This document shows, piece after piece, positions 1-9,547 of a DNA stretch of 34,765 nt (within the stretch, counting starts at the first letter, position 1; each line of letters opens with the position of its first letter). The notes below the pieces were generated by a model, which saw only the letters and a list, made by a program, of their open reading frames with translations, did not search any database and was not told the DNA's origin. A program made the position numbers and the translations under genes. This DNA comes from Nitrososphaerales archaeon (GTDB taxonomy: Archaea; Thermoproteota; Nitrososphaeria; Nitrososphaerales; JANXEG01), in contig JANXEG010000007.1 in NCBI GenBank assembly GCA_025058425.1, forward strand, positions 1 through 34,765, given 5' to 3'.

Positions 1-2
1 AT

Positions 3-86
3 ATAAGGGTAATCAGAGTATGCCCTTTCTCCCCAGAGGATTACGTTAAACTTTGGCAGACAAAATTAAAGAGCGCTAAAGAGTAA
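3..86 (+). CDS. C-terminal end of an unidentified protein (partial, cut by window edge)
   Basis: An open frame enters from the left edge and stops with TAA at 84-86, giving 27 C-terminal residues that include a PFSPEDYVKLW stretch and a Lys-rich end. The frame is open over the whole visible part, and the stop lies 19 bp before the convergent stop of the crotonase gene, which fits a real gene end. There is too little sequence to name a product. Because UbiX lies nearby, a UbiD-type partner was considered, but nothing in these residues supports it. Confidence 0.4.
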   Translation: MRVIRVCPFSPEDYVKLWQTKLKSAKE

Positions 87-105
87 CTTCGTTAAATATA
101 CTTCA

Positions 106-900
106 TCACTTCCCTTTCCATTGGGCCTTCCTTTTATTGAGGAAGGCATCGACACCCTCTTTAAAGTCTTCTGTCTGAAATGTTATCAAAATCAAATCAC
201 TCAACGCTTCTTTAAGATCTCTTAATTGGTTGATCAAATGTTTATTCATAATCTTCTTCATCGTACTCAATGCGATAGGCGCTGAAGTATCGATACTCTC
301 AACGAGCTCTTTTACAGCATCTTTAAGTCTATTTGATGGCACAACCTTATTCACCAAGCCTATTCTTTCTGCCTCGTTACTCGATATCGGATTGCCAGTA
401 AAGAGCAACTCAGATAGCTTTCTTCTATCGATAATGGAAGGTCCAAATACAGATGCCATCGGTGCTATGATCCCCAAACGCCCCTCTGGCTGTGCAAATC
501 TAGCATCTTCTGAAGCTATTACCAAATCACAGACCATGACCAACTCACAACCACCACCATACGCCAATCCATTTACAGCAGCGACTACCAGCTTCTTGCT
601 ACTCAATATCTTTTCAAAAGTAGGATACAAACACTCAAAGAACGCTACATAAGCATCCTTTGCATTTTTGTATAGGGATGGGAACTCACTTATATCGTAA
701 CCCGCACAGAACGCTCTACCGCTCCCCGTTATAACTATGGCAGATATCCCATCATCTATCTCAGCCTTCTCAATGGCTTTGTAAATCTCGTACCACGCTT
801 CTCTATTGAGCGCATTAAGTTTCTCGGGTCTATTTAACGTTATCCAAGCGATCTTCCCCTCCTTCTCATATTTTAAATATTTGAATTCAAACTCGGACAA
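106..900 (-). CDS. Enoyl-CoA hydratase/isomerase (crotonase) family protein
   Basis: A cytosolic crotonase-fold enzyme of 264 residues, the usual family length. It should act on an acyl-CoA thioester, most likely by hydrating an enoyl-CoA. The N-terminal ITLNRPEKLNAL motif (about 20-31), the CAGYD oxyanion-hole segment (65-69) and YGGGCEL (114-120) are canonical. Both glutamates that activate water in hydratases appear to be present: E119 in GGCEL and E139 in QPEGRLG. The segment after QPEGRLG departs from the common PGAGGTQ motif, so the substrate cannot be named; in archaea such proteins serve fatty-acid or branched-chain degradation and, in some lineages, 3-hydroxypropionyl-/crotonyl-CoA hydration. 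The start is TTG at 900, just before the first beta strand. It stands alone on the minus strand, divergent from ubiX. Confidence 0.88.
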   Translation of the reverse strand: MSEFEFKYLKYEKEGKIAWITLNRPEKLNALNREAWYEIYKAIEKAEIDDGISAIVITGSGRAFCAGYDISEFPSLYKNAKDAYVAFFECLYPTFEKILSSKKLVVAAVNGLAYGGGCELVMVCDLVIASEDARFAQPEGRLGIIAPMASVFGPSIIDRRKLSELLFTGNPISSNEAERIGLVNKVVPSNRLKDAVKELVESIDTSAPIALSTMKKIMNKHLINQLRDLKEALSDLILITFQTEDFKEGVDAFLNKRKAQWKGK

Positions 901-1070
901 ATTCCCACCTTCTTACTCCATCCTTCATCTTTAAAATTCTCTTTAACATAAAGCTTGCTATTAATTTTTGACTTTTGACTTTGGATGGAAATTTCAAAAA
1001 TCCTCTATACCTTTTCCGATCTATTTAAGTATCTCAACGATTTAACTGGAGTACGGAGTAAGTGGTGTAG

Positions 1071-1640
1071 TTGCAGATAATCGTCGGGATGTGTGGGGCT
1101 AGCGGTATTATCTATGGCCTCAGATTTTTAGAGGTTTCAAAAGAAATCGGTATCAGAACCCATCTGGTACTAACAGAGGGTTGTAAAAGATTGATCGGTC
1201 TAGAAACTGAGTACAGCATTGAAGATATCAAATCCTTGGCTTCGGTAACTTATGAGATAGACGATATGTTTGCACCTATAGCGAGTGGATCATTTAAGAC
1301 CGATGGCATGGTGGTTATACCATGTAGTATGAAGACCCTCGCTGGCATAGCGTGTGGCTATTCGGAGAATCTCCTTCTAAGGGCTGCCGATGTCACCATT
1401 AAAGAAGGTAGGCCCTTAATACTCGTTACTCGGGAGAGCCCTCTGAGCCCGATCCATCTGGAGAATATGCTAAAGTTGGCAAGGATCGGTGTTTACATCT
1501 TGCCAGCCTCACCATCTTTCTATGGAAGGCCAAAAACGATTCAGGATCTTGTTAACACCGTTGTAGGAAGGGTCCTCGATATCCTGAAGGTCGAACATAA
1601 AGTCTATAAGAGATGGGGCGAAGAGTATGAGTTCGATTGA
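1071..1640 (+). CDS. ubiX: Flavin prenyltransferase UbiX
   Basis: UbiX joins dimethylallyl phosphate to reduced FMN to make prenyl-FMN, the cofactor of UbiD-type decarboxylases. The 189-residue length is normal. The N-terminal G-x-C-G-A-S-G flavin loop (residues 6-12) follows the first beta strand directly. The central IPCSMKTLAGIA block, the NLLLRAADV-KE segment and the RESPLSPIHLENM segment are the family signature. Since the first strand begins at residue 2, the TTG at 1071 must be the start; the next ATG would delete it. In archaea prenyl-FMN is needed by UbiD-family enzymes, including anhydromevalonate-phosphate decarboxylase of the archaeal mevalonate pathway, so this gene may support lipid synthesis (inference). 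No ubiD is visible in the window. Confidence 0.95.
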   Translation: MQIIVGMCGASGIIYGLRFLEVSKEIGIRTHLVLTEGCKRLIGLETEYSIEDIKSLASVTYEIDDMFAPIASGSFKTDGMVVIPCSMKTLAGIACGYSENLLLRAADVTIKEGRPLILVTRESPLSPIHLENMLKLARIGVYILPASPSFYGRPKTIQDLVNTVVGRVLDILKVEHKVYKRWGEEYEFD

Positions 1641-1667
1641 TGCATCGCTACAAATACTAATCAAATT

Positions 1668-1685
1668 TTAATCGAATTCGATTAA
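1668..1685. terminator. Perfect 18-bp palindrome between convergent ubiX and phosphoesterase genes
   Basis: The 18 bases centred between 1676 and 1677 read identically on both strands. They lie in the 58-bp gap between two gene ends that face each other. A symmetrical site here could act as a bidirectional 3'-end signal, or as a protein-binding site. As an RNA hairpin it would have no unpaired loop unless the central pairs open. The function is inferred only from position and symmetry. Confidence 0.35.
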
Positions 1686-1698
1686 GCTGGTTTTAGTT

Positions 1699-2538
1699 TT
1701 ATGAAAGGTGCTTAAGGTTAGATAAGTAACCTAAGTACGTTCCATCGAGAAGGTATAACTCAGATTTTTCTATATCGATCGCGCTCGATCTAAATATGGG
1801 TCCAAGATACCTCGTATCCGCTTCTCTATTCACAGCCATACCCTTCAGTAGGGGGTTGAAGGTGGGCATGACTACGATGCGAGAGTTTTTTGGTGTAATT
1901 CTAAACGATCTTTTAAAGAAGTCGATAGGATCCCCTTTCACCTTTAACCTCTTCGATTTAAGGAAATATGCTATAATCTTCGACCTATCCCATCTTGTAA
2001 CGAGCCAGACCGGCTCGATCAATCGAAGCCCAGAGTCCTCGACCATCTCTACCACAAAGTGGTGATGGCCCATAATCAGGATATCGGCACCGAAGGCTTC
2101 TGGATACGGCCATGAATGACCGTGGATGAGATAAACCGCTCTTTTACCGCTCTTCAACATTAAGCCTTTTGGAGTATGGAGATTCACCTTGGAAGGGAGT
2201 AGTGTCTTTAAACCACCGTCATGATTCCCGGGAATTATATCGATTTTATCTATACATGTTAACAATCTTTCGAAGAAGTTGGGCAGATCGCCCCATTCAT
2301 GAGGTAAAATCTTACCCATTCCATGCTTAACATCTCCTAGTATGATCAATCTATTCGGTTCTTGAGCATCTAATATCTTCTTTAATTTATCATAAATCTT
2401 TTCGATTTGGGAAGGGATGTTAAAACCATGAGTATAAAGCTCTCTTTCAAAACCTAGGTGCAAGTCTGAGATCAAAAGGATCTTTTCAACATTCGTTTTG
2501 AGAATCAGAGCAGGTTCATTCTGTACGATGTTTAACAT
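1699..2538 (-). CDS. Metallophosphoesterase of the Lhr-associated (PdeM/ICC-like) group, orphan copy
   Basis: A calcineurin-like, dinuclear-metal phosphoesterase of 279 residues. All metal-binding motifs are visible: SDLHLG (D25, H27), GDVKHG (about 69-73), GNHD (104-107), HGHS (139-142) and GHHH (157-160). The GDVKH form of the second motif also occurs in the gene next to lhr at 19.8 kb, so the two are paralogues of the same subgroup, whose bacterial members are nucleases or phosphodiesterases linked to Lhr helicases. This copy has no helicase neighbour. Its ATG start at 2538 lies only about 55 bp from the hairpin at the end of the IS607 element, so the element may sit in or close to its promoter. 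The substrate is unknown; DNA or RNA phosphodiester hydrolysis is the best guess. Confidence 0.8.
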   Translation of the reverse strand: MLNIVQNEPALILKTNVEKILLISDLHLGFERELYTHGFNIPSQIEKIYDKLKKILDAQEPNRLIILGDVKHGMGKILPHEWGDLPNFFERLLTCIDKIDIIPGNHDGGLKTLLPSKVNLHTPKGLMLKSGKRAVYLIHGHSWPYPEAFGADILIMGHHHFVVEMVEDSGLRLIEPVWLVTRWDRSKIIAYFLKSKRLKVKGDPIDFFKRSFRITPKNSRIVVMPTFNPLLKGMAVNREADTRYLGPIFRSSAIDIEKSELYLLDGTYLGYLSNLKHLS

Positions 2539-2592
2539 CTTCTAACATCTTCAAAATTTCATTCTTACTTCCGATATTTAACTTACCGTTGT

Positions 2593-2620
2593 CGGATAGT
2601 TAACTTTTTATAACTATCCG
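2593..2620 (-). other. Stem-loop at the 3' end of tnpB (possible omega-RNA or element-end structure)
   Basis: A 10-bp perfect inverted repeat (2593-2602 and 2611-2620) with an 8-base loop overlaps the last codons and stop of tnpB. In characterised IS200/IS605 and IS607 elements the guide RNA used by TnpB (omega-RNA) is transcribed across the 3' end of tnpB and the right end of the element. A conserved-looking stem exactly here could therefore be part of such an RNA, a transcript end, or a recombination end. The pairing is seen directly; the role is inference. Confidence 0.45.
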
Positions 2621-3412
2621 TTCCACCTCAGCCTTTAGGGCTTCATCGATGGCTTTCGCCGCCAACGGTAAAGGACGGCACATCGGAAGTTTATTCGCTA
2701 TATTCCAAGCGGCAACAAAATGCCTACCTGCTTGGAAGCCACATCGTTTGCATTTGAAGACATGCCCATTCGGCTTACTAGTTTCGCCACATATCGGGCA
2801 TGTTTTAGAAGTATTTTTAGCATTTATGAACTCGGGTTTGAATCCAAGCTCCATGGACTTATATGAAATGTAAAACTGTATCTTTCTGAATGGTATTGTG
2901 TGGAGCCTTCTATTCATAATCTTAGTATAGTGCACTTTTTCCCTAATACCTTTTAACTCCTCCATTATCGGCTTGACCTCTTCCTCATCCACAATTTTAG
3001 CTATAATTTTAGATGCTCTATGGATTATCGCATCGACTCTCTTCTTCTCTCTTCCAGAATACTTAGCCAGCAACGAGGCTTTAATCTTCCCCAATCTTCT
3101 ACTTTGTATACTTCTTCTCTTCTTGAAATACCTGTCTCTGATGTATTTAGCTTCACTTATGTCTATCTTTATGAACTTTACCTTATCTGGCTTGACCAGT
3201 GCTAAATCTATACTCTTCTCATTAATATCTATGCCTAATACACCTTCAGTTTCCCTTTCTTCAACAAGTTTCCTAAAAGTCACGTGTAAGAAGAAGCCGT
3301 CTCTATTCCTCACGAGCCTTGAGCCTTTAACCTGCCAATCCATGAACTTCTTTGAATGCTCATGAACTTCGAATGGAATAATTACATGCCCCTTATGCGT
3401 AGCCAACTTCAA
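2600..3412 (-). CDS. tnpB: TnpB C-terminal part (RuvC-like nuclease and zinc ribbon), frame-shifted from the N-terminal part
   Basis: 270 residues carrying the nuclease half of a TnpB protein. RuvC-I is present as GIDIN (D62) and RuvC-II as IMEELKGI (E151). The zinc ribbon is CPIC...CKRC (C205, C208, C221, C224). The third motif, usually DRDxNAAxNI, reads GRHFVAAWNI here: the catalytic Asp position is His231 and the preceding Asp is Gly. The frame opens at a TTG that overlaps the stop of the upstream part (TTGA, four bases). The first residues continue the beta-rich region expected straight after the end of that part, so the two frames are one ancestral TnpB of about 400 residues with a -1 shift between them. 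It could be made as a separate chain by reinitiation, by frameshifting, or not at all. Confidence 0.8.
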   Translation of the reverse strand: MKLATHKGHVIIPFEVHEHSKKFMDWQVKGSRLVRNRDGFFLHVTFRKLVEERETEGVLGIDINEKSIDLALVKPDKVKFIKIDISEAKYIRDRYFKKRRSIQSRRLGKIKASLLAKYSGREKKRVDAIIHRASKIIAKIVDEEEVKPIMEELKGIREKVHYTKIMNRRLHTIPFRKIQFYISYKSMELGFKPEFINAKNTSKTCPICGETSKPNGHVFKCKRCGFQAGRHFVAAWNIANKLPMCRPLPLAAKAIDEALKAEVERIVIKS

Positions 3413-3798
3413 GCTTCCCAGCTAAACCAGAATAGATGCATATCGTCTAGAAGAACAACTTTCAGATTCTTAACGTTTGGAGGGCTAATGTTCATCCTTT
3501 TCCTAGAGAGCCTTCTGCATGACTTGAACATAGCTAAAGCCTGCGTTATAGCCGTGTAGATATAATGAGAGGGATAGCGGGGATATTTTTCTCTCAACTC
3601 TCTATAAACCACCTCATGGAGCTTCTTTCGAGAAGTCACGTTTAAACGCATAACTTTAAGCAAGCATACTTTAACCATTTCGGAGTATGCTTTAAAGAGT
3701 TCATCCAGTACAGTTATCTGCTCTTCTTTAGGCTCAAGTTTAAATCTACATGTTTCACTCAGCAATAAGCTGTTTGACACCTTCAACCACCCTCTCAT
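3409..3798 (-). CDS. tnpB: TnpB N-terminal part, ends at frame break
   Basis: 129 residues corresponding to the N-terminal half of TnpB: an RFKLEPKEEQ segment near residue 20 (the usual start of TnpB after the leader), a helical region rich in Lys and Arg, and a beta-rich end. It stops at a TGA (3411-3409) exactly where an unbroken TnpB would run on in the -1 frame. In the -1 frame a TAG lies ten bases upstream of the switch point, so any slippage must occur within that short stretch. The gene overlaps the end of tnpA by 44 bases, so it is translated from the same transcript. The start is ATG at 3798. A sequencing error cannot be excluded from the sequence alone. Confidence 0.72.
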   Translation of the reverse strand: MRGWLKVSNSLLLSETCRFKLEPKEEQITVLDELFKAYSEMVKVCLLKVMRLNVTSRKKLHEVVYRELREKYPRYPSHYIYTAITQALAMFKSCRRLSRKRMNISPPNVKNLKVVLLDDMHLFWFSWEA

Positions 3799-4366
3799 AC
3801 TTGTGGCTTCTCATTCCATAGAGCTTTCCAGCGAAGCTCGAAACCAAGGCTATTAAATCTTCTACAAGTTCTTGGTAAGCATCTTTTGGCTCCTCACCGT
3901 TAACAACTTCTATTCTAACATTGTGGGATATGAAGTAACGCTCTAAATACCTGAAGCCGAATCTTGTAAGCCTATCTTTAAATCCGATGATGACAACACC
4001 TACCTCTTTCCCCTCAACCATATCAAATAGTTTATTCAAGGACTTCCTATTTTCATTAAGCCCACTTGCAACGTCCTCCAATATCGAAATAACTTCATAG
4101 CCTTTAGACTTAGCGTATTCTAATAAGCCGTGTTTTTGTCTATCCAAATCGCCCTTCTGGTCATGAGAAGAAACTCTACAATAGATTATGGCTTTTTTAG
4201 ACACATCTGGTCTAACGATTCCCATTAAACGTTCGACTTCATGTTTAGGTATTCTTCTTCTACCGCCAACTGTTCTAACAACCTTAATCTTACCTTGCCT
4301 ATCCCACTTCCTAAGCGTATTTGGATGAACACCTAACCTTTCACATGCTTCTTTAAGTGTCAGCAA
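3755..4366 (-). CDS. tnpA: IS607-family transposase TnpA (serine recombinase)
   Basis: A small serine recombinase that moves the element through a circular intermediate. The first 50 residues are a MerR-type helix-turn-helix (LTLKEACERLGVHPNTLRKW). A resolvase catalytic domain follows: IYCRVSSHDQ with nucleophile Ser66, the DLDRQ segment, then a DVASGLNENR segment and GFKDRLTRFG, both typical of IS607 TnpA. The DNA-binding domain at the N-terminus rather than the C-terminus separates this group from ordinary resolvases. Length (203 residues) is standard and no damage is visible. The start is TTG at 4366; a TATA-like GTATAAC lies about 24 bp upstream, so the transcript may be leaderless. Translation runs into tnpB with a 44-base overlap. 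Confidence 0.93.
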   Translation of the reverse strand: MLTLKEACERLGVHPNTLRKWDRQGKIKVVRTVGGRRRIPKHEVERLMGIVRPDVSKKAIIYCRVSSHDQKGDLDRQKHGLLEYAKSKGYEVISILEDVASGLNENRKSLNKLFDMVEGKEVGVVIIGFKDRLTRFGFRYLERYFISHNVRIEVVNGEEPKDAYQELVEDLIALVSSFAGKLYGMRSHKYERVVEGVKQLIAE

Positions 4367-4432
4367 CTTCTCTGAAGTGGTAAGAAATGTTATACAAAGT
4401 TAATTATTTAGAAAGTGCAGCTTAACCCTTCT

Positions 4433-5122
4433 TTAAACGATGAGCGGATATATTTCATTTATAATATAATTTATGAGTTCGTCTTCTCCAATTTTACTGA
4501 ATACTGTGATTACAGCATTTCTTGTTACACCAACGATATAACCGTACTTCTTTGACTTTACTACTACGTACCAGATCTTTCCATGTGCACAATAATCATC
4601 GTATAGAGTTGTATTTGAGAGTTCGGAACCATACAACGATAACTTTTTGATATTTGGGATATCAACTTCATCGAAGAAGATGACCTTCGCATCTTCGTAA
4701 TTATCCTCATGAAATCTTTTAAGGACTTCAGGAGGGATTCTTACTTCCACTATGTATCCAGTCGTTATGAATAAAATCTTACTTAATTGGTTGGCGATAT
4801 TATTCGCCCTCTCTTTCTTCTCTAATATAGTCAATAGTAACTTGTCTCCAACTTTATTAAAGATGAATGGTGCAACGATGGTTTTTGGTATGGGGATTAT
4901 TTCACCATGGTGAAATACGTTTAAAATTTGGTCTTGAGAGAAGATTCCCTTTAGAGATTCAGCCACCATATTAAGATTGGTAATTTCAGTAATCAATTCG
5001 ATCTTTCTTCCATCGTATTCAAATAGCTCTATACTCTTGTAATTCTTCAACTTCTTTGCTATGGTGTCTAAATCGATATCTTCACGAACGATAAAGACCT
5101 TCGCTGCTAAAACCATGATCAC
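4433..5122 (-). CDS. Unrecognised 229-residue protein next to the IS607 element
   Basis: I do not recognise this protein. It has no signal peptide, clear membrane segment or cysteine cluster. It looks like a soluble alpha/beta protein with alternating hydrophobic strands (for example KVFIVRE near the start, VEVRIPPEVLKRF in the middle, IWYVVV and YGYIVGV near the end). The C-terminal segment (from about residue 170) with YCAHGKIWYVVVKSKKYGYIVGVTRNAVITVF reads like a compact conserved domain. The start may be GTG at 5122 or ATG at 5116. It is transcribed towards the element, has its own upstream region shared with divergent priL, and stops within 66 bp of tnpA. Its A+T-rich codon use is similar to its neighbours, so there is no strong sign of recent transfer. 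It could be a passenger gene or a resident gene beside the insertion. Confidence 0.7.
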   Translation of the reverse strand: MIMVLAAKVFIVREDIDLDTIAKKLKNYKSIELFEYDGRKIELITEITNLNMVAESLKGIFSQDQILNVFHHGEIIPIPKTIVAPFIFNKVGDKLLLTILEKKERANNIANQLSKILFITTGYIVEVRIPPEVLKRFHEDNYEDAKVIFFDEVDIPNIKKLSLYGSELSNTTLYDDYCAHGKIWYVVVKSKKYGYIVGVTRNAVITVFSKIGEDELINYIINEIYPLIV

Positions 5123-5288
5123 ACCCTTATGTAATCATTCAACTAACTAGATTTAATAACTCTACTTTCTCTTCAACTTCAATATGGATATTTAAATTCA
5201 AATTCTTATGCTCTTACGAATTTACAAATTTACAAGTGGGTGTAAAGAGAAATAAGTGAGTATATTGTTTTAGTATAGCAGTATTACC

Positions 5289-6302
5289 TTGTCGGTCGAA
5301 TTGGGGTTAGAGGACTTAGCCAAATACCCTTTTATTAAGGAAACAGGGGAGTATATCAAGCGACTTAATCTTCGAATAGAAGATCTAACCCAACCTGATT
5401 ATAACAACATCGTTAAAAGGGCTAAAGAAAGAATTATGGAGGCTATACGCAAAAGGGCATTATCGGAGGATATACGTGAACCAGAGGTAGAGATACTTTC
5501 ATTTCCAATATCTCTTCTAATGGTAAAAGCTTCTGGAAGTGATCATCTTGCCTCTATATATTCGTTAGCAGAAGCAACCCGTATAGAGGGGTTCTTAAAG
5601 CGTGAAAGAAAACCAGTCATCTATCACATCATTAAAGATGCTTTTAATATCGATCTGGTGGAAGTTTCAGAAGAAGAACTTAGATCAAGGTTCGATTATA
5701 AAATTAAGATCAAAGAGTATTTGAAAAGGGCTACCTATTTTCATGAGTTAGAGTGGAAATTGATCAATAAAGTTGTACATCAAGGATATGTATACCTAAA
5801 AACCCACGAGTTGGTACGCTTAATTAGAGAAGAGATTCGAAGAACCATCTACAATCGAATCAAGGATCTAGCGGTACCTAAGTTGCCCGAGGTGATAAAG
5901 AGCGCTGTGAATGAAATCTCAAATCTGATTCAAAAACTATCAAGTAAGGAGCGAATATCGATCATTCCTAAAGATTATCCACCCTGTGTAAATTATACTC
6001 TCGAACTTCTTCAAAGGGGGCAGAATATACCACACTTTGGGAGATTCTTGATGAGTACATATCTACTCAACATCGGTAAAACGGTAGATGAGATTATACA
6101 ACTTTACCCGAAAGCGCCAGACTTCAACGAACGAGTCACCAAGTATCAGGTAGAGCATATAGCCGGGCTAAGGGGTAGTAGGATAAAGTATAAGTGCCCA
6201 TCGTGTAGAACCCTTCAAACACATGGTCTGTGCTTTAAAGATGAGACTTGTGATGAAATTAAAAATCCTTTACAGTATGGGAGGGTTAAATCTAAAAGGT
6301 AA
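5289..6302 (+). CDS. priL: DNA primase large subunit PriL
   Basis: The non-catalytic subunit of the archaeal/eukaryotic-type primase. It supports initiation and product-length control through an iron-sulfur domain. Four cysteines positioned as the 4Fe-4S ligands are visible: C233 in DYPPC, C306 in CPSC, C315 in GLC and C321 in ETC, with the family spacing; C303 is an additional nearby cysteine. The N-terminal helical domain (1-210) and total length of 337 residues fit archaeal PriL. The start is TTG at 5289, with a TATA-like stretch roughly 25 bp upstream. It is the first gene of an operon with priS, gins51 and rpo12; priS begins 36 bp after its stop. Confidence 0.93.
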   Translation: MSVELGLEDLAKYPFIKETGEYIKRLNLRIEDLTQPDYNNIVKRAKERIMEAIRKRALSEDIREPEVEILSFPISLLMVKASGSDHLASIYSLAEATRIEGFLKRERKPVIYHIIKDAFNIDLVEVSEEELRSRFDYKIKIKEYLKRATYFHELEWKLINKVVHQGYVYLKTHELVRLIREEIRRTIYNRIKDLAVPKLPEVIKSAVNEISNLIQKLSSKERISIIPKDYPPCVNYTLELLQRGQNIPHFGRFLMSTYLLNIGKTVDEIIQLYPKAPDFNERVTKYQVEHIAGLRGSRIKYKCPSCRTLQTHGLCFKDETCDEIKNPLQYGRVKSKR

Positions 6303-6338
6303 AAAGGTAATTAGAGATTATAATCTTAGGGTTAAAGG

Positions 6339-7508
6339 TTGGAAGGATCTTTAGATGAGAAGACTCTAAATTTGATGAAGCAAGCCTTTAAGCAATACTA
6401 CTTTAAAGCTGGAGATCGCATATCGCCTCCGAGCCGAATGAATGAACGTGAATTTGGATATATACCATTCGGAGGCAGTATGATTAGACACCTTTCTTTC
6501 AAAACATTTGGAGAGTTATATGCATTACTCGTGAGGGAAGCTCCTCACTCTGTGTTCTATTCGGCCGCTTACTACCTCGAACCCACTCTACCGATGCATG
6601 AGAAAGGGTGGAAGGGTGGGGATCTGATCTTCGATATCGATGCAGATAATCTACAATTACCTTGTAGGAAAGATCATAATCTGTGGACATGTAAAGGTTG
6701 TGGTTTGAAACGAATCGGTTCAAGGCCAAAGAAGTGCCCAAACTGTGATGGAGGTAGTATTTCAGAGTTAAACTGGGCATGTGAAAAGTGTCTTGAAGCG
6801 GCAAAGAATGAAGCATTGAAGCTGATCGATATTTTAATGAAGGATTTTGGGATAAATAAGAATGAAATTAAGGTGTACTTTTCTGGTAATATGGGTTATC
6901 ACGTATCTGTTGAAAGTAAAGAGTTTGAAGAATTGGATCAGGCCGCTAGAGGTGAGATCGCGGATTATGTCTCAGGTAGAGGTTTAATCCCTGAAAGTAT
7001 CGGTGTATTTAAACGTGCCACCTATGAAAGTTTGGTGGAGAATTTACCGCGTATAGGAGAGCCCGGTTGGAGAGGGAGGTTGGCGGCGAGCTTTGCAAAT
7101 TGGAAGGTGGATGGATTTGGTGATGGTGATACAAGAGAGAAGATTGCAGCACTTTATGGTAAGATCCGTTATTCAAAGTTTAAAAAAAGATTGGAAGTTG
7201 AAATGTTAAAGATCGGTGTTAGGATAGATACGATGGTTACGACTGATATACATAGGATATTCAGGATGCCAGGCACACTTCACGGTGAAACAGGGCTTTT
7301 AAAGATGTTATGTGATGACTTGGTAAGTTTTAACCCTCTAAATGATGCGGTAGTGTTAAGTGATGAGCCTGTGGATGTATTTATCGAATATTCACCAAGG
7401 CTACAGTTGAAGGATCAGATATATCCACCTTTTAAAAGAGAAAGGGTAAAGTTACCTTTGATGGTTGCTGTATATCTAGCTGGTAAATGTTTAGCAAGGG
7501 TGGTGTAA
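6339..7508 (+). CDS. priS: DNA primase small (catalytic) subunit PriS
   Basis: Makes primers at the replication fork as the catalytic half of the PriS/PriL heterodimer. The metal-binding FDIDAD motif (D99 and D101, with D103 following) and the SGNMGYHV motif, containing the conserved His that contacts the nucleotide triphosphate, are both present. A zinc-binding knuckle is inserted after the DxD motif: C109, then C-x2-C (CKGC) and two further cysteine pairs (CPNC, CEKC) by about residue 155. The late DIHRIFRMPGTLHGETGL segment contains the conserved Arg/His region. The 389-residue length is at the upper end for archaea because of the cysteine-rich insert. It starts with TTG at 6339. Its stop is one base before the gins51 start. 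Confidence 0.95.
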   Translation: MEGSLDEKTLNLMKQAFKQYYFKAGDRISPPSRMNEREFGYIPFGGSMIRHLSFKTFGELYALLVREAPHSVFYSAAYYLEPTLPMHEKGWKGGDLIFDIDADNLQLPCRKDHNLWTCKGCGLKRIGSRPKKCPNCDGGSISELNWACEKCLEAAKNEALKLIDILMKDFGINKNEIKVYFSGNMGYHVSVESKEFEELDQAARGEIADYVSGRGLIPESIGVFKRATYESLVENLPRIGEPGWRGRLAASFANWKVDGFGDGDTREKIAALYGKIRYSKFKKRLEVEMLKIGVRIDTMVTTDIHRIFRMPGTLHGETGLLKMLCDDLVSFNPLNDAVVLSDEPVDVFIEYSPRLQLKDQIYPPFKRERVKLPLMVAVYLAGKCLARVV

Positions 7509-7509
7509 A

Positions 7510-8070
7510 ATGGTCGAACCGATCCTTAATGAGCTCTACAAAATTTTGGAGGAAGAATCAAAGTCTGAGAAGTTGATAAAGATTCGTAGAACCCTGTATA
7601 AAGATGTAGCCACGTACATAAAGATGATTAAGGCCAATACCGAACGAAATGATCACGATGTTGTCAGTAAATTGATAACGAGAGAGCGAGAGTTGATCAT
7701 AGATTTGGTAGAGAGGCTTTTGAGGTTGAGAATAAGTAAGATAATACGTTCGATGAATGAAGTTGAATACGTTCATTTAACGCCTGAAGAGAAGTATATA
7801 GTCGAGTCTATCAACCTTTCGGTAAAGAAATATGAGAAGATAAAGAGAGCGATCTGGAATGGCCAACCCTCGGTTTTAGAATTTATAGCGGAGAAGATGG
7901 CATCAAAGTATACTGTGGTAAGGTTTTTACAACCCTCTCCGCCGATCGTAGGTACAGATCTTACAAAGTACGGCCCATTCCAAAAGGAGGATGTAGCCGT
8001 ATTACCATCGGATAACGCATGGCCTCTTATAAAGCGTGGTATAGCGGTAGAACTTTGGGATATAGATTAA
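7510..8070 (+). CDS. gins51: GINS complex subunit, Gins51 (Gins15) type
   Basis: A component of the archaeal GINS complex that bridges MCM helicase, the RecJ/Cdc45-like protein and primase at the fork. The helical A domain comes first (about 1-125) and the small beta B domain last, which is the Gins51 order. The B domain has the hallmark VRFLQPSPPIVGTDLTKYGPF segment followed by DVAVLPSDNAWPLIKRGIAVEL. The gene begins one base after priS, so the primase and GINS are translationally coupled; GINS-primase contacts are known in archaea. No Gins23 gene is visible. Length (186 residues) is normal. Confidence 0.92.
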   Translation: MVEPILNELYKILEEESKSEKLIKIRRTLYKDVATYIKMIKANTERNDHDVVSKLITRERELIIDLVERLLRLRISKIIRSMNEVEYVHLTPEEKYIVESINLSVKKYEKIKRAIWNGQPSVLEFIAEKMASKYTVVRFLQPSPPIVGTDLTKYGPFQKEDVAVLPSDNAWPLIKRGIAVELWDID

Positions 8071-8115
8071 TGAGAACTAAATGAAAACGTTCATATATCA
8101 CCTATCTTCTTCGAT

Positions 8116-8304
8116 ATGATTGGCCGTAGAGAGATGGAGAGTTCCAGTAAATCTTTCGGTGGAGTAATATATGAATGCGTAAGGTGTGGGACTAAAGTAT
8201 CTGCTGAGGAATTGGCCCAATTACCTGAGATTAAGTGTATTTGTGGGTATAGAGTTTTGAAAAAGTCAAGACCTCCAGTAGTAAAGCAATTAAAAGCGAT
8301 TTAA
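8116..8304 (+). CDS. rpo12: RNA polymerase subunit Rpo12 (RpoP)
   Basis: The small zinc-ribbon subunit of archaeal RNA polymerase, equivalent to eukaryotic Rpb12. Visible features are YECVRCG near residue 20 and CICGYRVLKKSRPP near 41-54, the four Cys and the basic tail that define the family. The usual protein is about 45-50 residues, so the real start may be the downstream ATG at 8134 rather than the ATG at 8116. It follows gins51 by 45 bp and is probably the last gene of the primase operon. It converges with the MFS gene, 31 bp away. Confidence 0.93.
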   Translation: MIGRREMESSSKSFGGVIYECVRCGTKVSAEELAQLPEIKCICGYRVLKKSRPPVVKQLKAI

Positions 8305-8335
8305 TCTAAATGATAAGTACTCCTAATTTAATTGA

Positions 8336-9547
8336 TCATTCAGACTTCCAATAGCCCTTCCCATGAGTTTTAGGCATAATTGTTAAGAGAAATATTAAGC
8401 CTGTAAAATAGGCGAAGATCGGTATAAAAAATGCATTCTCTAGACCAAAATTTTGTCCCACATATCCTGCAATAGCTGGGGCGATGGTGTTAGCGATATA
8501 AGTAGGTAAGAAGAAGAGCGCATAACCGACACCTCTCTTCTTTGCAGGGGTGAGTTGAGCAAGTAAAGAAGCGGTCGCTGCCATTGCAGTAAAGTTAAAA
8601 GTTCCATAAATCAAGATAAAAGCAATAATAAGTGTAATATGATTTGCATAGATGAGTCCGAGGAGAGAAAAGGGTGTCATGAGTAATGAGACGGCGAACC
8701 ATCTTTTCGCACCAATCTTATCGGTCAAAAAACCACCTATCAGAGCAGCTATACCACCCATGAGTGGCATCAATCCGAAGATTATACTCGCTGCATCCTT
8801 GGGAACATTTCTCTCAAATACAAGGAAGGGCGATAAGATCGTCGAAACCATCTGCATCCCAATAGCCCTTAAAGAAATTATAAAGAGAAATATTAAGAGC
8901 GCCAGAGTTAAGAATTGGCTAGTGGGAGGTGCGCTTTCTTTATCACTAACGCTAAACTCTCTCTTAGTACTCTGAGAAGTAGTAGGCTTTACTCTTAGAA
9001 GTATAAGAGCACTGATAATCGTAGGTACCATCCACAGTAGATACGTAAAGCGCCAACCGTAAGATGATAGCAGAAGACCGGCTGTAATAGGGCCAAGGGC
9101 TAAGCCTAAGGTCCCTGCTCCACCGTGAATACCTAAAGCTTTTCCTCGATTATTCGGCTCCATCAATCTACTGGCCAAACTATACGCGGGCGGATGGTAG
9201 ATCGCGGTTGAAAGGTTTATTATGGATATACCCAAAATCACCATATACTCATTGGATGCGTTACCCATCATCAATGCACCACTTAAGGTTAGAAGAAGGC
9301 TGATAAGAATTACTTTAACGGATCCGAGTTTATCCGCAATTATTCCACCTGGAATCGTGGCTACTACTTGGCATAAGGTGGCTATTGAAAGGATTATACC
9401 AATTGTGGATAAATTAAGGTTGAATTCGATCATAATTACTGGTAATAAGGCTAAGTGGATTTGAAGGTATGCGTGGTTTATCATATGTGTAGATGCAACG
9501 GCACCTAAACTAAGGGCCTTCTTTAGGTTATGGACCAGGGTTGACAA
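8336..9547 (-). CDS. Major facilitator superfamily transporter
   Basis: An inner-membrane secondary transporter of 403 residues with about twelve hydrophobic segments in two halves and a more polar central loop (around 195-215, Ser/Lys/Glu-rich). The first cytoplasmic loop carries a GGIIADKLG motif, matching the MFS motif A (G-x-x-x-D-R/K-x-G), and the second half repeats it as GGFLTDKIGAKR. The substrate cannot be read from the sequence. It is monocistronic with A+T-rich DNA upstream, facing the end of rpo12 and unrelated in function to its neighbours. Confidence 0.9.
   Translation of the reverse strand: MSTLVHNLKKALSLGAVASTHMINHAYLQIHLALLPVIMIEFNLNLSTIGIILSIATLCQVVATIPGGIIADKLGSVKVILISLLLTLSGALMMGNASNEYMVILGISIINLSTAIYHPPAYSLASRLMEPNNRGKALGIHGGAGTLGLALGPITAGLLLSSYGWRFTYLLWMVPTIISALILLRVKPTTSQSTKREFSVSDKESAPPTSQFLTLALLIFLFIISLRAIGMQMVSTILSPFLVFERNVPKDAASIIFGLMPLMGGIAALIGGFLTDKIGAKRWFAVSLLMTPFSLLGLIYANHITLIIAFILIYGTFNFTAMAATASLLAQLTPAKKRGVGYALFFLPTYIANTIAPAIAGYVGQNFGLENAFFIPIFAYFTGLIFLLTIMPKTHGKGYWKSE

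What the first reader, a model, noticed from the sequence alone, without database searches (positions are those of the whole stretch)
2600..3412. TnpB with the third RuvC acidic residue replaced by His
RuvC-I Asp62 and RuvC-II Glu151 are intact, but the DRDxNAA motif reads GRHFVAA, so the catalytic Asp position is His and the preceding Asp is also gone. Known possibilities are a nuclease-inactive TnpB with an RNA-guided regulatory role, a relocated acidic residue as seen in some rearranged TnpB clades, or plain decay. The zinc ribbon and the TnpA gene are intact, which makes simple decay less obvious.
Basis: partly seen in the sequence, partly recalled or inferred. Interest (0 to 1): 0.52.

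Follow-up and report, generated by a model that had tools for sequence, protein, structure and literature searches.

The report
TnpB nuclease with relocated catalytic residue
A jumping-gene nuclease that seems to have lost one of its three catalytic residues belongs to archaeal families that carry a replacement acidic residue elsewhere in the same active-site region, so the family is probably working, although this particular copy is broken by a frameshift.

Summary
In detail: the RuvC-III motif reads GRHFVAA, with Asp62 and Glu151 intact. Two things were missed. First, this tnpB is split by a one-base frameshift: its N-terminal third lies at 3409-3798 in another frame, so this copy is not intact. 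Second, His is not a lesion of this copy. It is fixed across a family of archaeal IS607 elements, several with intact ~400-aa TnpB, dN/dS around 0.1 and His codons split CAT 11/CAC 10. Only the Gly is private within that family.

The family carries a candidate compensating carboxylate: an Asp seven residues after the RuvC-I Asp (D69 here; motif D-x-N-x-x-S-I-D). Across 109 TnpB ORFs, 46 of 50 with His or Gln at RuvC-III have this Asp, against 4 of 52 with the usual Asp. The pairing recurs in up to five lineages, including a large DRQ group with four intact copies per genome in two genomes. A structured omega-RNA scaffold is conserved.

Best reading: the third metal-binding Asp moved from RuvC-III to RuvC-I +7, and the clade probably still cuts DNA. 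Geometry and cleavage are untested. A RuvC-III-rearranged clade (RIII-r4) is already named in print; whether it is this one could not be checked.

The parts
2585..4428 (-). IS607-type element: left end near 4424-4428, right end at 2585
   Evidence: Right end CCGACAACGGT shared (with small variants) by 24 loci, followed by full divergence; left end inferred from an alignment of upstream regions; coordinates. The left boundary is good to a few bases only.
3755..4366 (-). tnpA, IS607 serine transposase with N-terminal HTH, 203 aa, intact
   Evidence: NF033518 227 bits vs cut-off 110; Resolvase and HTH_17 in Pfam; 74-83% identical to full-length tnpA of close relatives
3409..3798 (-). tnpB, N-terminal part (129 aa), in another frame from the rest
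   Evidence: tblastn to in-frame N-termini of relatives, 54-74% identity
3409..3421 (-). frameshift junction between the two tnpB parts
   Evidence: the other 8 copies aligned lack the one-base gap; intact copies exist
2600..3412 (-). tnpB, C-terminal part: RuvC-I to RuvC-III and zinc ribbon, 270 aa
3227..3229 (-). RuvC-I catalytic Asp62
   Evidence: invariant in all 109 TnpB ORFs
3206..3208 (-). Asp69, RuvC-I +7: candidate relocated third carboxylate
2960..2962 (-). RuvC-II catalytic Glu151
2720..2722 (-). His231 at the usual RuvC-III Asp position
2726..2728 (-). Gly229, where 27 of 28 distinct family loci have Asp
2741..2800 (-). zinc ribbon CPIC...CKRC
2585..2690 (-). omega-RNA scaffold and right end: stem with internal hairpins, terminal hairpin at 2593-2620, long-range ACCGTTG/CAACGGT pairing possible
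   Evidence: conserved and covarying in 23 distinct aligned scaffolds; not in Rfam at gathering score
2560..2584 (-). predicted guide segment (host flank after the right end)
   Evidence: first 18 bases match only their own site in the window's genome, up to 3 mismatches

Best explanation
This is an archaeal IS607 element whose TnpB belongs to a lineage in which the third RuvC carboxylate has moved. The Asp that normally sits on the RuvC-III helix has become His (Gln in sister groups), and an Asp has appeared on the strand after RuvC-I, seven residues after the first catalytic Asp. The inferred active site is therefore Asp (RuvC-I), Asp (RuvC-I +7) and Glu (RuvC-II), with His/Gln left as a neutral neighbour. 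The clade's TnpB is expected to pair with the omega-RNA made from the element's right end, use the flanking sequence as guide, and cut matching DNA, as ordinary TnpB does to keep the transposon in place. In this window the gene is frameshifted, and the Asp two residues before the His is also Gly, so this copy is probably a recently broken member of a working family. Shown here: the sequence facts, clade-wide His, the +7 Asp association, purifying selection, the conserved omega-RNA scaffold, and the frameshift in this assembly. Inferred: that +7 Asp sits in the metal site, that it substitutes for the lost Asp, and that the intact relatives cut DNA.
For: His at RuvC-III in 28 of 28 distinct family loci from several named archaeal lineages. 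Seven full-length family ORFs of about 400 aa (L031, L032, L033, L035, L036, L049, L143). Group pairs give dN around 0.19 with dS mostly above 1.2 (dS near saturation), pN/pS 0.15-0.29; His codons CAT 11, CAC 10 of 21 read. A scan of acidic columns conserved in the His groups A and B but rare in Asp-type rows turned up P0002 position 199 = RuvC-I +7: A 10/10, B 9/9, E 2/2, NxQ/H 4/6, Asp-type 4/52. In the final set of 109 ORFs, 46 of 50 His/Gln proteins have +7 Asp and 4 of 52 Asp proteins do (Fisher p 3e-19, not corrected for relatedness). The RuvC-I Asp and RuvC-II Glu are invariant in those 50 of 50. On the 102-row tree the Asp/non-Asp change occurs 5 times, each non-Asp group carrying +7 Asp in most or all rows. 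Mobile and functional context: an IS607 tnpA in or beside family loci, a structured omega-RNA scaffold with compensatory pairs such as CG17/GC6 and CG14/GC7, and a DRQ/+7D element present as four intact copies in each of two genomes, copies 87-96% identical over about 1.9 kb with dN/dS 0.09-0.19. The model of an intact relative (pLDDT 82.9) has the whole Cas12f/TnpB fold, Z up to 23.7. From memory, not from a call: in the related ASKHA beta1-beta2 hairpin the +7 side chain points to the active site (actin D11/K18, glycerol kinase D10/R17).
Against: No coordinates were available, so the distance of D199 from the metal site is not measured; the model's secondary structure (strands 187-193 and 197-204) alone does not fix which face D199 is on. 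Two His proteins (L139, L152) and two Gln proteins (L170, L174) lack +7 Asp. Independent-pair testing has only 3 pairs on well-supported branches and cannot reach significance. A single origin of all non-Asp types is only weakly rejected (AU p 0.043; groups A+B alone 0.086, not rejected). Four Asp proteins also have +7 Asp. No activity data exist for this clade in what I read. Many group A copies are broken, so decay is common in it.
Confidence: 0.62

Rival explanations
1. The clade is cleavage-dead: TnpB with omega-RNA binds matching DNA without cutting, as Cas12m does, and is kept for silencing or for controlling transposition.
For: Cas12m2 with an H-D-D triad binds one Mg2+ and does not cut dsDNA (PMC10442227, passages); Cas12m H-D-D and N-D-D forms likewise (PMC11013384, passages). 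Mutating the third Asp of SisTnpB1 (D335) or ISFba1 TnpB (D371) compromises or removes activity (PMC10640517; PMC11061315). Purifying selection and a kept omega-RNA scaffold fit binding as well as cutting.
Against: RuvC-I Asp and RuvC-II Glu stay invariant in 50 of 50 His/Gln proteins, and a new Asp appears with the loss. Elements carry TnpA and multiply, unlike regulators exapted from transposons (recalled). Viral-contig scans found no relatives.
Confidence: 0.22
2. His itself replaces Asp as metal ligand (D-E-H site), and the +7 Asp is incidental.
For: His is strictly kept in groups A and B with silent codon changes in A. From memory: the Cas9 and Thermus RuvC sites include a His.
Against: Gln, a poor metal ligand, stands at the same place in 30 of the 50 non-Asp proteins, and +7 Asp accompanies both His and Gln.
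Confidence: 0.08
3. Plain decay: GRH and the split gene are both degeneration of an ordinary D-E-D TnpB.
For: The gene is frameshifted here, and the Gly is private within its family.
Against: His is common to the whole family and under purifying selection. The window has only 3 private changes at columns invariant in the other 8 rows, against 3-12 in the others, so little has decayed besides the frameshift.
Confidence: 0.05
4. A side question, independent of the others: the frameshift is an assembly or sequencing error and the window's TnpB is an intact DRH-clade protein with one unusual Gly.
For: The shift is one base in a short run of one base; the rest of the protein shows no excess of private changes; Gly before R-H also occurs in the intact L155.
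Against: About 20 other genes in the window appear as single full ORFs, and frameshifted copies are common in this family. Not testable without reads.
Confidence: 0.3

Closest known systems
TnpB clade RIII-r4 (RuvC-III rearrangement) of the 2023 TnpB/Cas12 classification, as cited in PMC10278001
   Same: A TnpB clade defined by an atypical RuvC-III catalytic motif; PMC10278001 states that such clades need not be inactive, since compensatory changes may permit function (passages and section 13)
   Different: The text I could read gives no residues for RIII-r4, and the source paper is not held, so identity with the DRH/DRQ + RuvC-I +7 Asp groups is unknown; the DRQ group may well be it
Fanzor and pro-Fanzor TnpBs with a relocated RuvC-II Glu (PMC10711439, passages)
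   Same: Relocation of one catalytic carboxylate within RuvC of an IS607-associated TnpB
   Different: There the Glu moves next to the zinc finger; here the RuvC-III Asp is lost and an Asp appears at RuvC-I +7
Cas12m (type V-M), H-D-D triad (PMC10442227, PMC11013384; passages)
   Same: A His replaces one RuvC carboxylate; fold match of the model at Z 14.3 (8hhm) and 13.4 (8pm4)
   Different: His is at the first, not the third, position; CRISPR-associated; does not cut DNA; no +7 compensation described in what I read
SisTnpB1 and ISFba1 TnpB (canonical D-E-D; PMC10640517, PMC11061315)
   Same: RNA-guided TnpB of an archaeon and of IS607, respectively; same fold (8iaz, ISFba1, Z 18.1)
   Different: Third Asp (D335, D371) present and needed for activity
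TldR, nuclease-dead TnpB-derived transcription regulators (PMC13418256, search listing only)
   Same: Altered catalytic site in a TnpB relative (recalled)
   Different: TldR is described as phage-encoded (abstract); here elements carry tnpA and keep the other two catalytic residues

Membership tests
IS607-family insertion sequence | tnpA serine recombinase with N-terminal HTH next to tnpB | tested here: met
   NF033518 227 bits vs 110; Resolvase and HTH
IS607-family insertion sequence | defined ends without target-site duplication, GG core | tested here: inconclusive
   A sharp right end in 24 loci and a G-rich left boundary; no empty site was compared
TnpB RNA-guided endonuclease family | sequence family score | tested here: met
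   NF040570: window C-part 106.9, intact relative P0002 127.6, cut-off 100
TnpB RNA-guided endonuclease family | full-length protein with WED/REC, RuvC and zinc ribbon | tested here: not met
   For the window copy: frameshifted. Met by seven relatives and by the model of L033
TnpB RNA-guided endonuclease family | canonical D-E-D RuvC triad | tested here: not met
   Third Asp is His; candidate replacement Asp at RuvC-I +7
TnpB RNA-guided endonuclease family | omega-RNA at the 3' end of the element, ending at the right end | tested here: met
   Conserved covarying scaffold; expression not testable here
TnpB RNA-guided endonuclease family | guided DNA cleavage | not testable with these tools
   needs a cleavage assay
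TnpB clade RIII-r4 | its specific RuvC-III rearrangement | not testable with these tools
   Source paper not held; PMC10278001 names the clade without residues in the text read
Cas12m (V-M) | CRISPR array beside the gene | tested here: not met
   No CRISPR-like repeat array in window 1-9000
TldR | loss of transposon context (no tnpA) | tested here: not met
   Intact tnpA adjacent; feature recalled, not from a paper read here
TldR | erosion of several RuvC catalytic residues | tested here: not met
   RuvC-I Asp and RuvC-II Glu kept in 50 of 50 His/Gln proteins; feature recalled

The most novel reading that the evidence does not exclude
The third catalytic carboxylate of TnpB has moved repeatedly, in up to five archaeal lineages, from the RuvC-III helix to RuvC-I +7 on the neighbouring strand, leaving His or Gln behind, with a possible double-Asp intermediate (AQDLNF...S(V/I)D with (D/G)RD: L014, L017, L022). 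The result would be a second, convergent active-site layout for RNA-guided RuvC nucleases with altered metal use, and conceivably altered cutting.
Probability: 0.3. Interest if true: 0.65.

Novelty: new variant of a known kind. Interest (0 to 1): 0.5.

Why it matters
TnpB activity is often judged by the D-E-D triad, so whole archaeal families with H or Q at RuvC-III could be discarded as dead. If an Asp at RuvC-I +7 takes over, these are a separate set of compact RNA-guided nucleases, and the case shows how a nuclease can move a catalytic residue while the transposon keeps moving. It also gives a one-residue test that separates 'relocated' from 'dead' in any TnpB or Cas12 sequence.

Tried and rejected
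His as a lesion of this copy: rejected. Relocated Glu next to the zinc finger (Fanzor-like): rejected, RuvC-II Glu is in place. Other compensating acids: the scan listed 11 columns acidic in group A and rare in Asp-type rows, and 9 in group B. Position 199 is the only one fully kept in A, B and E; position 206 came next (A 0.90, B 0.67, NxQ/H 0.67, E 1.00, Asp-type 0.08 of 25 rows filled) but is a gap in 27 of 52 Asp-type rows.

Programmed frameshift at the tnpB junction: considered because two broken copies (window and L003) break near the same residue, but the nine aligned copies showed me no shared slippery stretch (read by eye); not pursued.

Viral and plasmid origins: three viral-contig scans found no relatives. 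In tblastn, 102 plasmid and 10 phage records matched, all under 60% identity (listed plasmid rows 25-29%, phage rows 28-31%).

Structure: the fold was predicted and matched, but no coordinates are given out, so active-site geometry could not be measured. Rfam found nothing at gathering score. My first alignment of the right end used approximate ends and was replaced. Clustering of all non-Asp types into one clade was tested and only weakly rejected. In the 54-row tree I left out 29 of 83 rows: distant Asp-type rows, fragments and broken frames. In the 102-row tree I left out 7 of 109, where RuvC-III was missing or not D/H/Q (listed). In the first tree I left out 6 of 59.

Literature: none of the ten searches listed a paper that I could see describing an Asp at RuvC-I +7; that covers open-licence PMC papers only, and mostly their listings or passages.

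Full report
What is there. The minus-strand ORF 2600-3412 encodes the C-terminal 270 residues of a TnpB, with Asp62, Glu151, a zinc ribbon and GRH at residues 229-231. The gene is not whole, though: the preceding 129 residues are encoded at 3409-3798 in another frame, and an alignment with eight other copies shows a one-base gap in the window at the junction. tnpA (3755-4366, minus) is intact. The element runs from about 4428 to 2585. Its right end is shared by 24 loci, after which the sequences diverge completely. The window's genome, a 1.28-Mb draft in 101 contigs, holds one copy.

His is a clade feature. A scan of genome contigs returned 15 related loci from records named Terraquivivens, Nitrososphaerales, Methanomethylicales, Bathyarchaeota, Jordarchaeum and others. 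The 14 that cover the motif all have His (12 DRH, one DKH, one DGH). With loci from whole-genome searches, 28 of 28 distinct family loci have His and 27 of 28 have Asp two residues before it; the window's Gly is the exception. Seven ORFs are full length. Group pairs show dN near 0.19 with dS near saturation (pN/pS 0.15-0.29), and the His codon is CAT in 11 and CAC in 10 of 21 sequences read. The window has 3 private changes at 254 compared columns, no more than the others, which have 3-12. So His is maintained, and the window copy looks recently broken rather than long decayed.

Where the missing carboxylate may have gone. I asked which acidic columns are conserved in the His groups but not in Asp-type TnpBs. 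The standout is RuvC-I +7 (P0002 position 199): 10 of 10 in group A, 9 of 9 in group B, 2 of 2 in group E, 4 of 6 in the NxQ/H group, against 4 of 52 Asp-type rows. Position +5 changes with it, mostly from Asn to Ser. Extending to 109 TnpB ORFs brought in a large group with DRQ and the same +7 Asp. Overall, 46 of 50 proteins with His or Gln at RuvC-III have +7 Asp and 4 of 52 with Asp do; of the remaining 7, five do not cover RuvC-III, one is Glu (L100) and one is read in a broken frame (L039). Fisher's p is 3e-19 but ignores relatedness. The four His/Gln exceptions are L139, L152, L170 and L174. Three of the four Asp proteins with +7 Asp (L014, L017, L022) form one group and could be intermediates; the fourth is L036:82-1269.

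Phylogeny. Trees built without the RuvC-III motif columns (one search also without the +6/+7 columns) place the non-Asp proteins in several groups: at least three changes of the His label on starred branches in the first tree, three Asp/non-Asp changes in the second with two forced by starred branches, five in the 102-row quick tree. The support is not decisive: one origin of all non-Asp types gives AU p 0.043 and A+B alone 0.086, and only three independent pairs stand on starred branches, where +7 Asp went the same way in 2.4 on average and the other way in 0.0. I therefore claim a strong association with probable, not proven, convergence.

RNA and mobility. The last ~105 nt of the element form a conserved scaffold, with pairs that change on both sides between sequences (CG17/GC5, CG17/GC6, CG17/GC6, CG14/GC7 among 23 distinct sequences) and with ACCGTTG upstream able to pair with the terminal CAACGGT. 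The Asp-type relative L005 shares the scaffold type. The window's scaffold is intact. The 18 bases after its right end match only themselves in its genome at up to 3 mismatches, as expected for a guide equal to the flank. In two genomes a DRQ/+7D element is present as four copies each, all with open frames, 87-96% identical within a genome over about 1.9 kb, with dN/dS 0.09-0.19. A TnpB of this active-site type is thus kept while its element multiplies.

Fold. The model of the intact relative L033 (mean pLDDT 82.9, pTM 0.72) matches Cas12f and TnpB structures across most of its length (AsCas12f Z 23.7 over residues 14-373, ISDra2 TnpB Z 19.9 over 12-377, ISFba1 TnpB Z 18.1). A profile-to-sequence alignment places the His under the Asp of the RuvC-III motif of Cas12f. 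Distances could not be measured. That +7 faces the active site in related hairpins (actin K18, glycerol kinase R17) is from memory.

Mechanism. Most likely the intact relatives are RNA-guided nucleases with an Asp-Asp-Glu site made of RuvC-I, RuvC-I +7 and RuvC-II, and His/Gln is what is left where the Asp was. That explains why the RuvC-I Asp and RuvC-II Glu never vary in the 50 His/Gln proteins, why both His and Gln occur, and why +7 Asp accompanies them. The main rival is binding without cutting, as in Cas12m (PMC10442227 and PMC11013384, passages), where a His-bearing site holds one metal and does not cut. Published D335 and D371 mutants show that simply losing the third Asp harms canonical TnpBs (PMC10640517, first part of the text; PMC11061315, passages), which makes compensation the more natural reading of a thriving lineage without it.

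Novelty. Relocated RuvC residues in TnpB are known: the Glu of Fanzor-like proteins (PMC10711439, passages) and a RuvC-III-rearranged clade, RIII-r4, which PMC10278001 names while noting that compensatory mutations may permit function (passages and section 13). I could not read the paper that defines RIII-r4, so the DRQ group, or all of these groups, may already be described. I rate this a new variant of a known kind, with that reservation.

Noticed in passing
L014, L017, L022 (TnpB ORFs): TnpBs with RuvC-I AQDLNF(R/K)S(V/I)D and RuvC-III (D/G)RD: both the usual and the +7 Asp, a possible intermediate state.
   Followed up: partly
L139, L152, L170, L174: His or Gln at RuvC-III without +7 Asp (Ser, Ala, Thr, Thr): the best candidates for truly cleavage-dead TnpBs in this set.
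   Followed up: no
L011, L012, L013, L016, L086, L089, L036:82-1269: NAD-type TnpBs (NVD in L011) whose aligned RuvC-II Glu is Gly (ILGDL/IIGNL-type motif), so their Glu must lie elsewhere if active: a second kind of rearrangement in the same archaea.
   Followed up: no
L031-L036, L042 right ends: Two versions of the terminal omega-RNA hairpin and TnpB C-terminus (VERIVIKS with CTATCCG, EVRGKG with GAGTCCC/GAATCCC) occur within one TnpB family, suggesting exchange of right ends between elements; the Asp-type L005 has the second version.
   Followed up: partly
L155: An intact 446-aa TnpB with GRH, the same pair of residues as the window, in a lineage distant from group A.
   Followed up: partly
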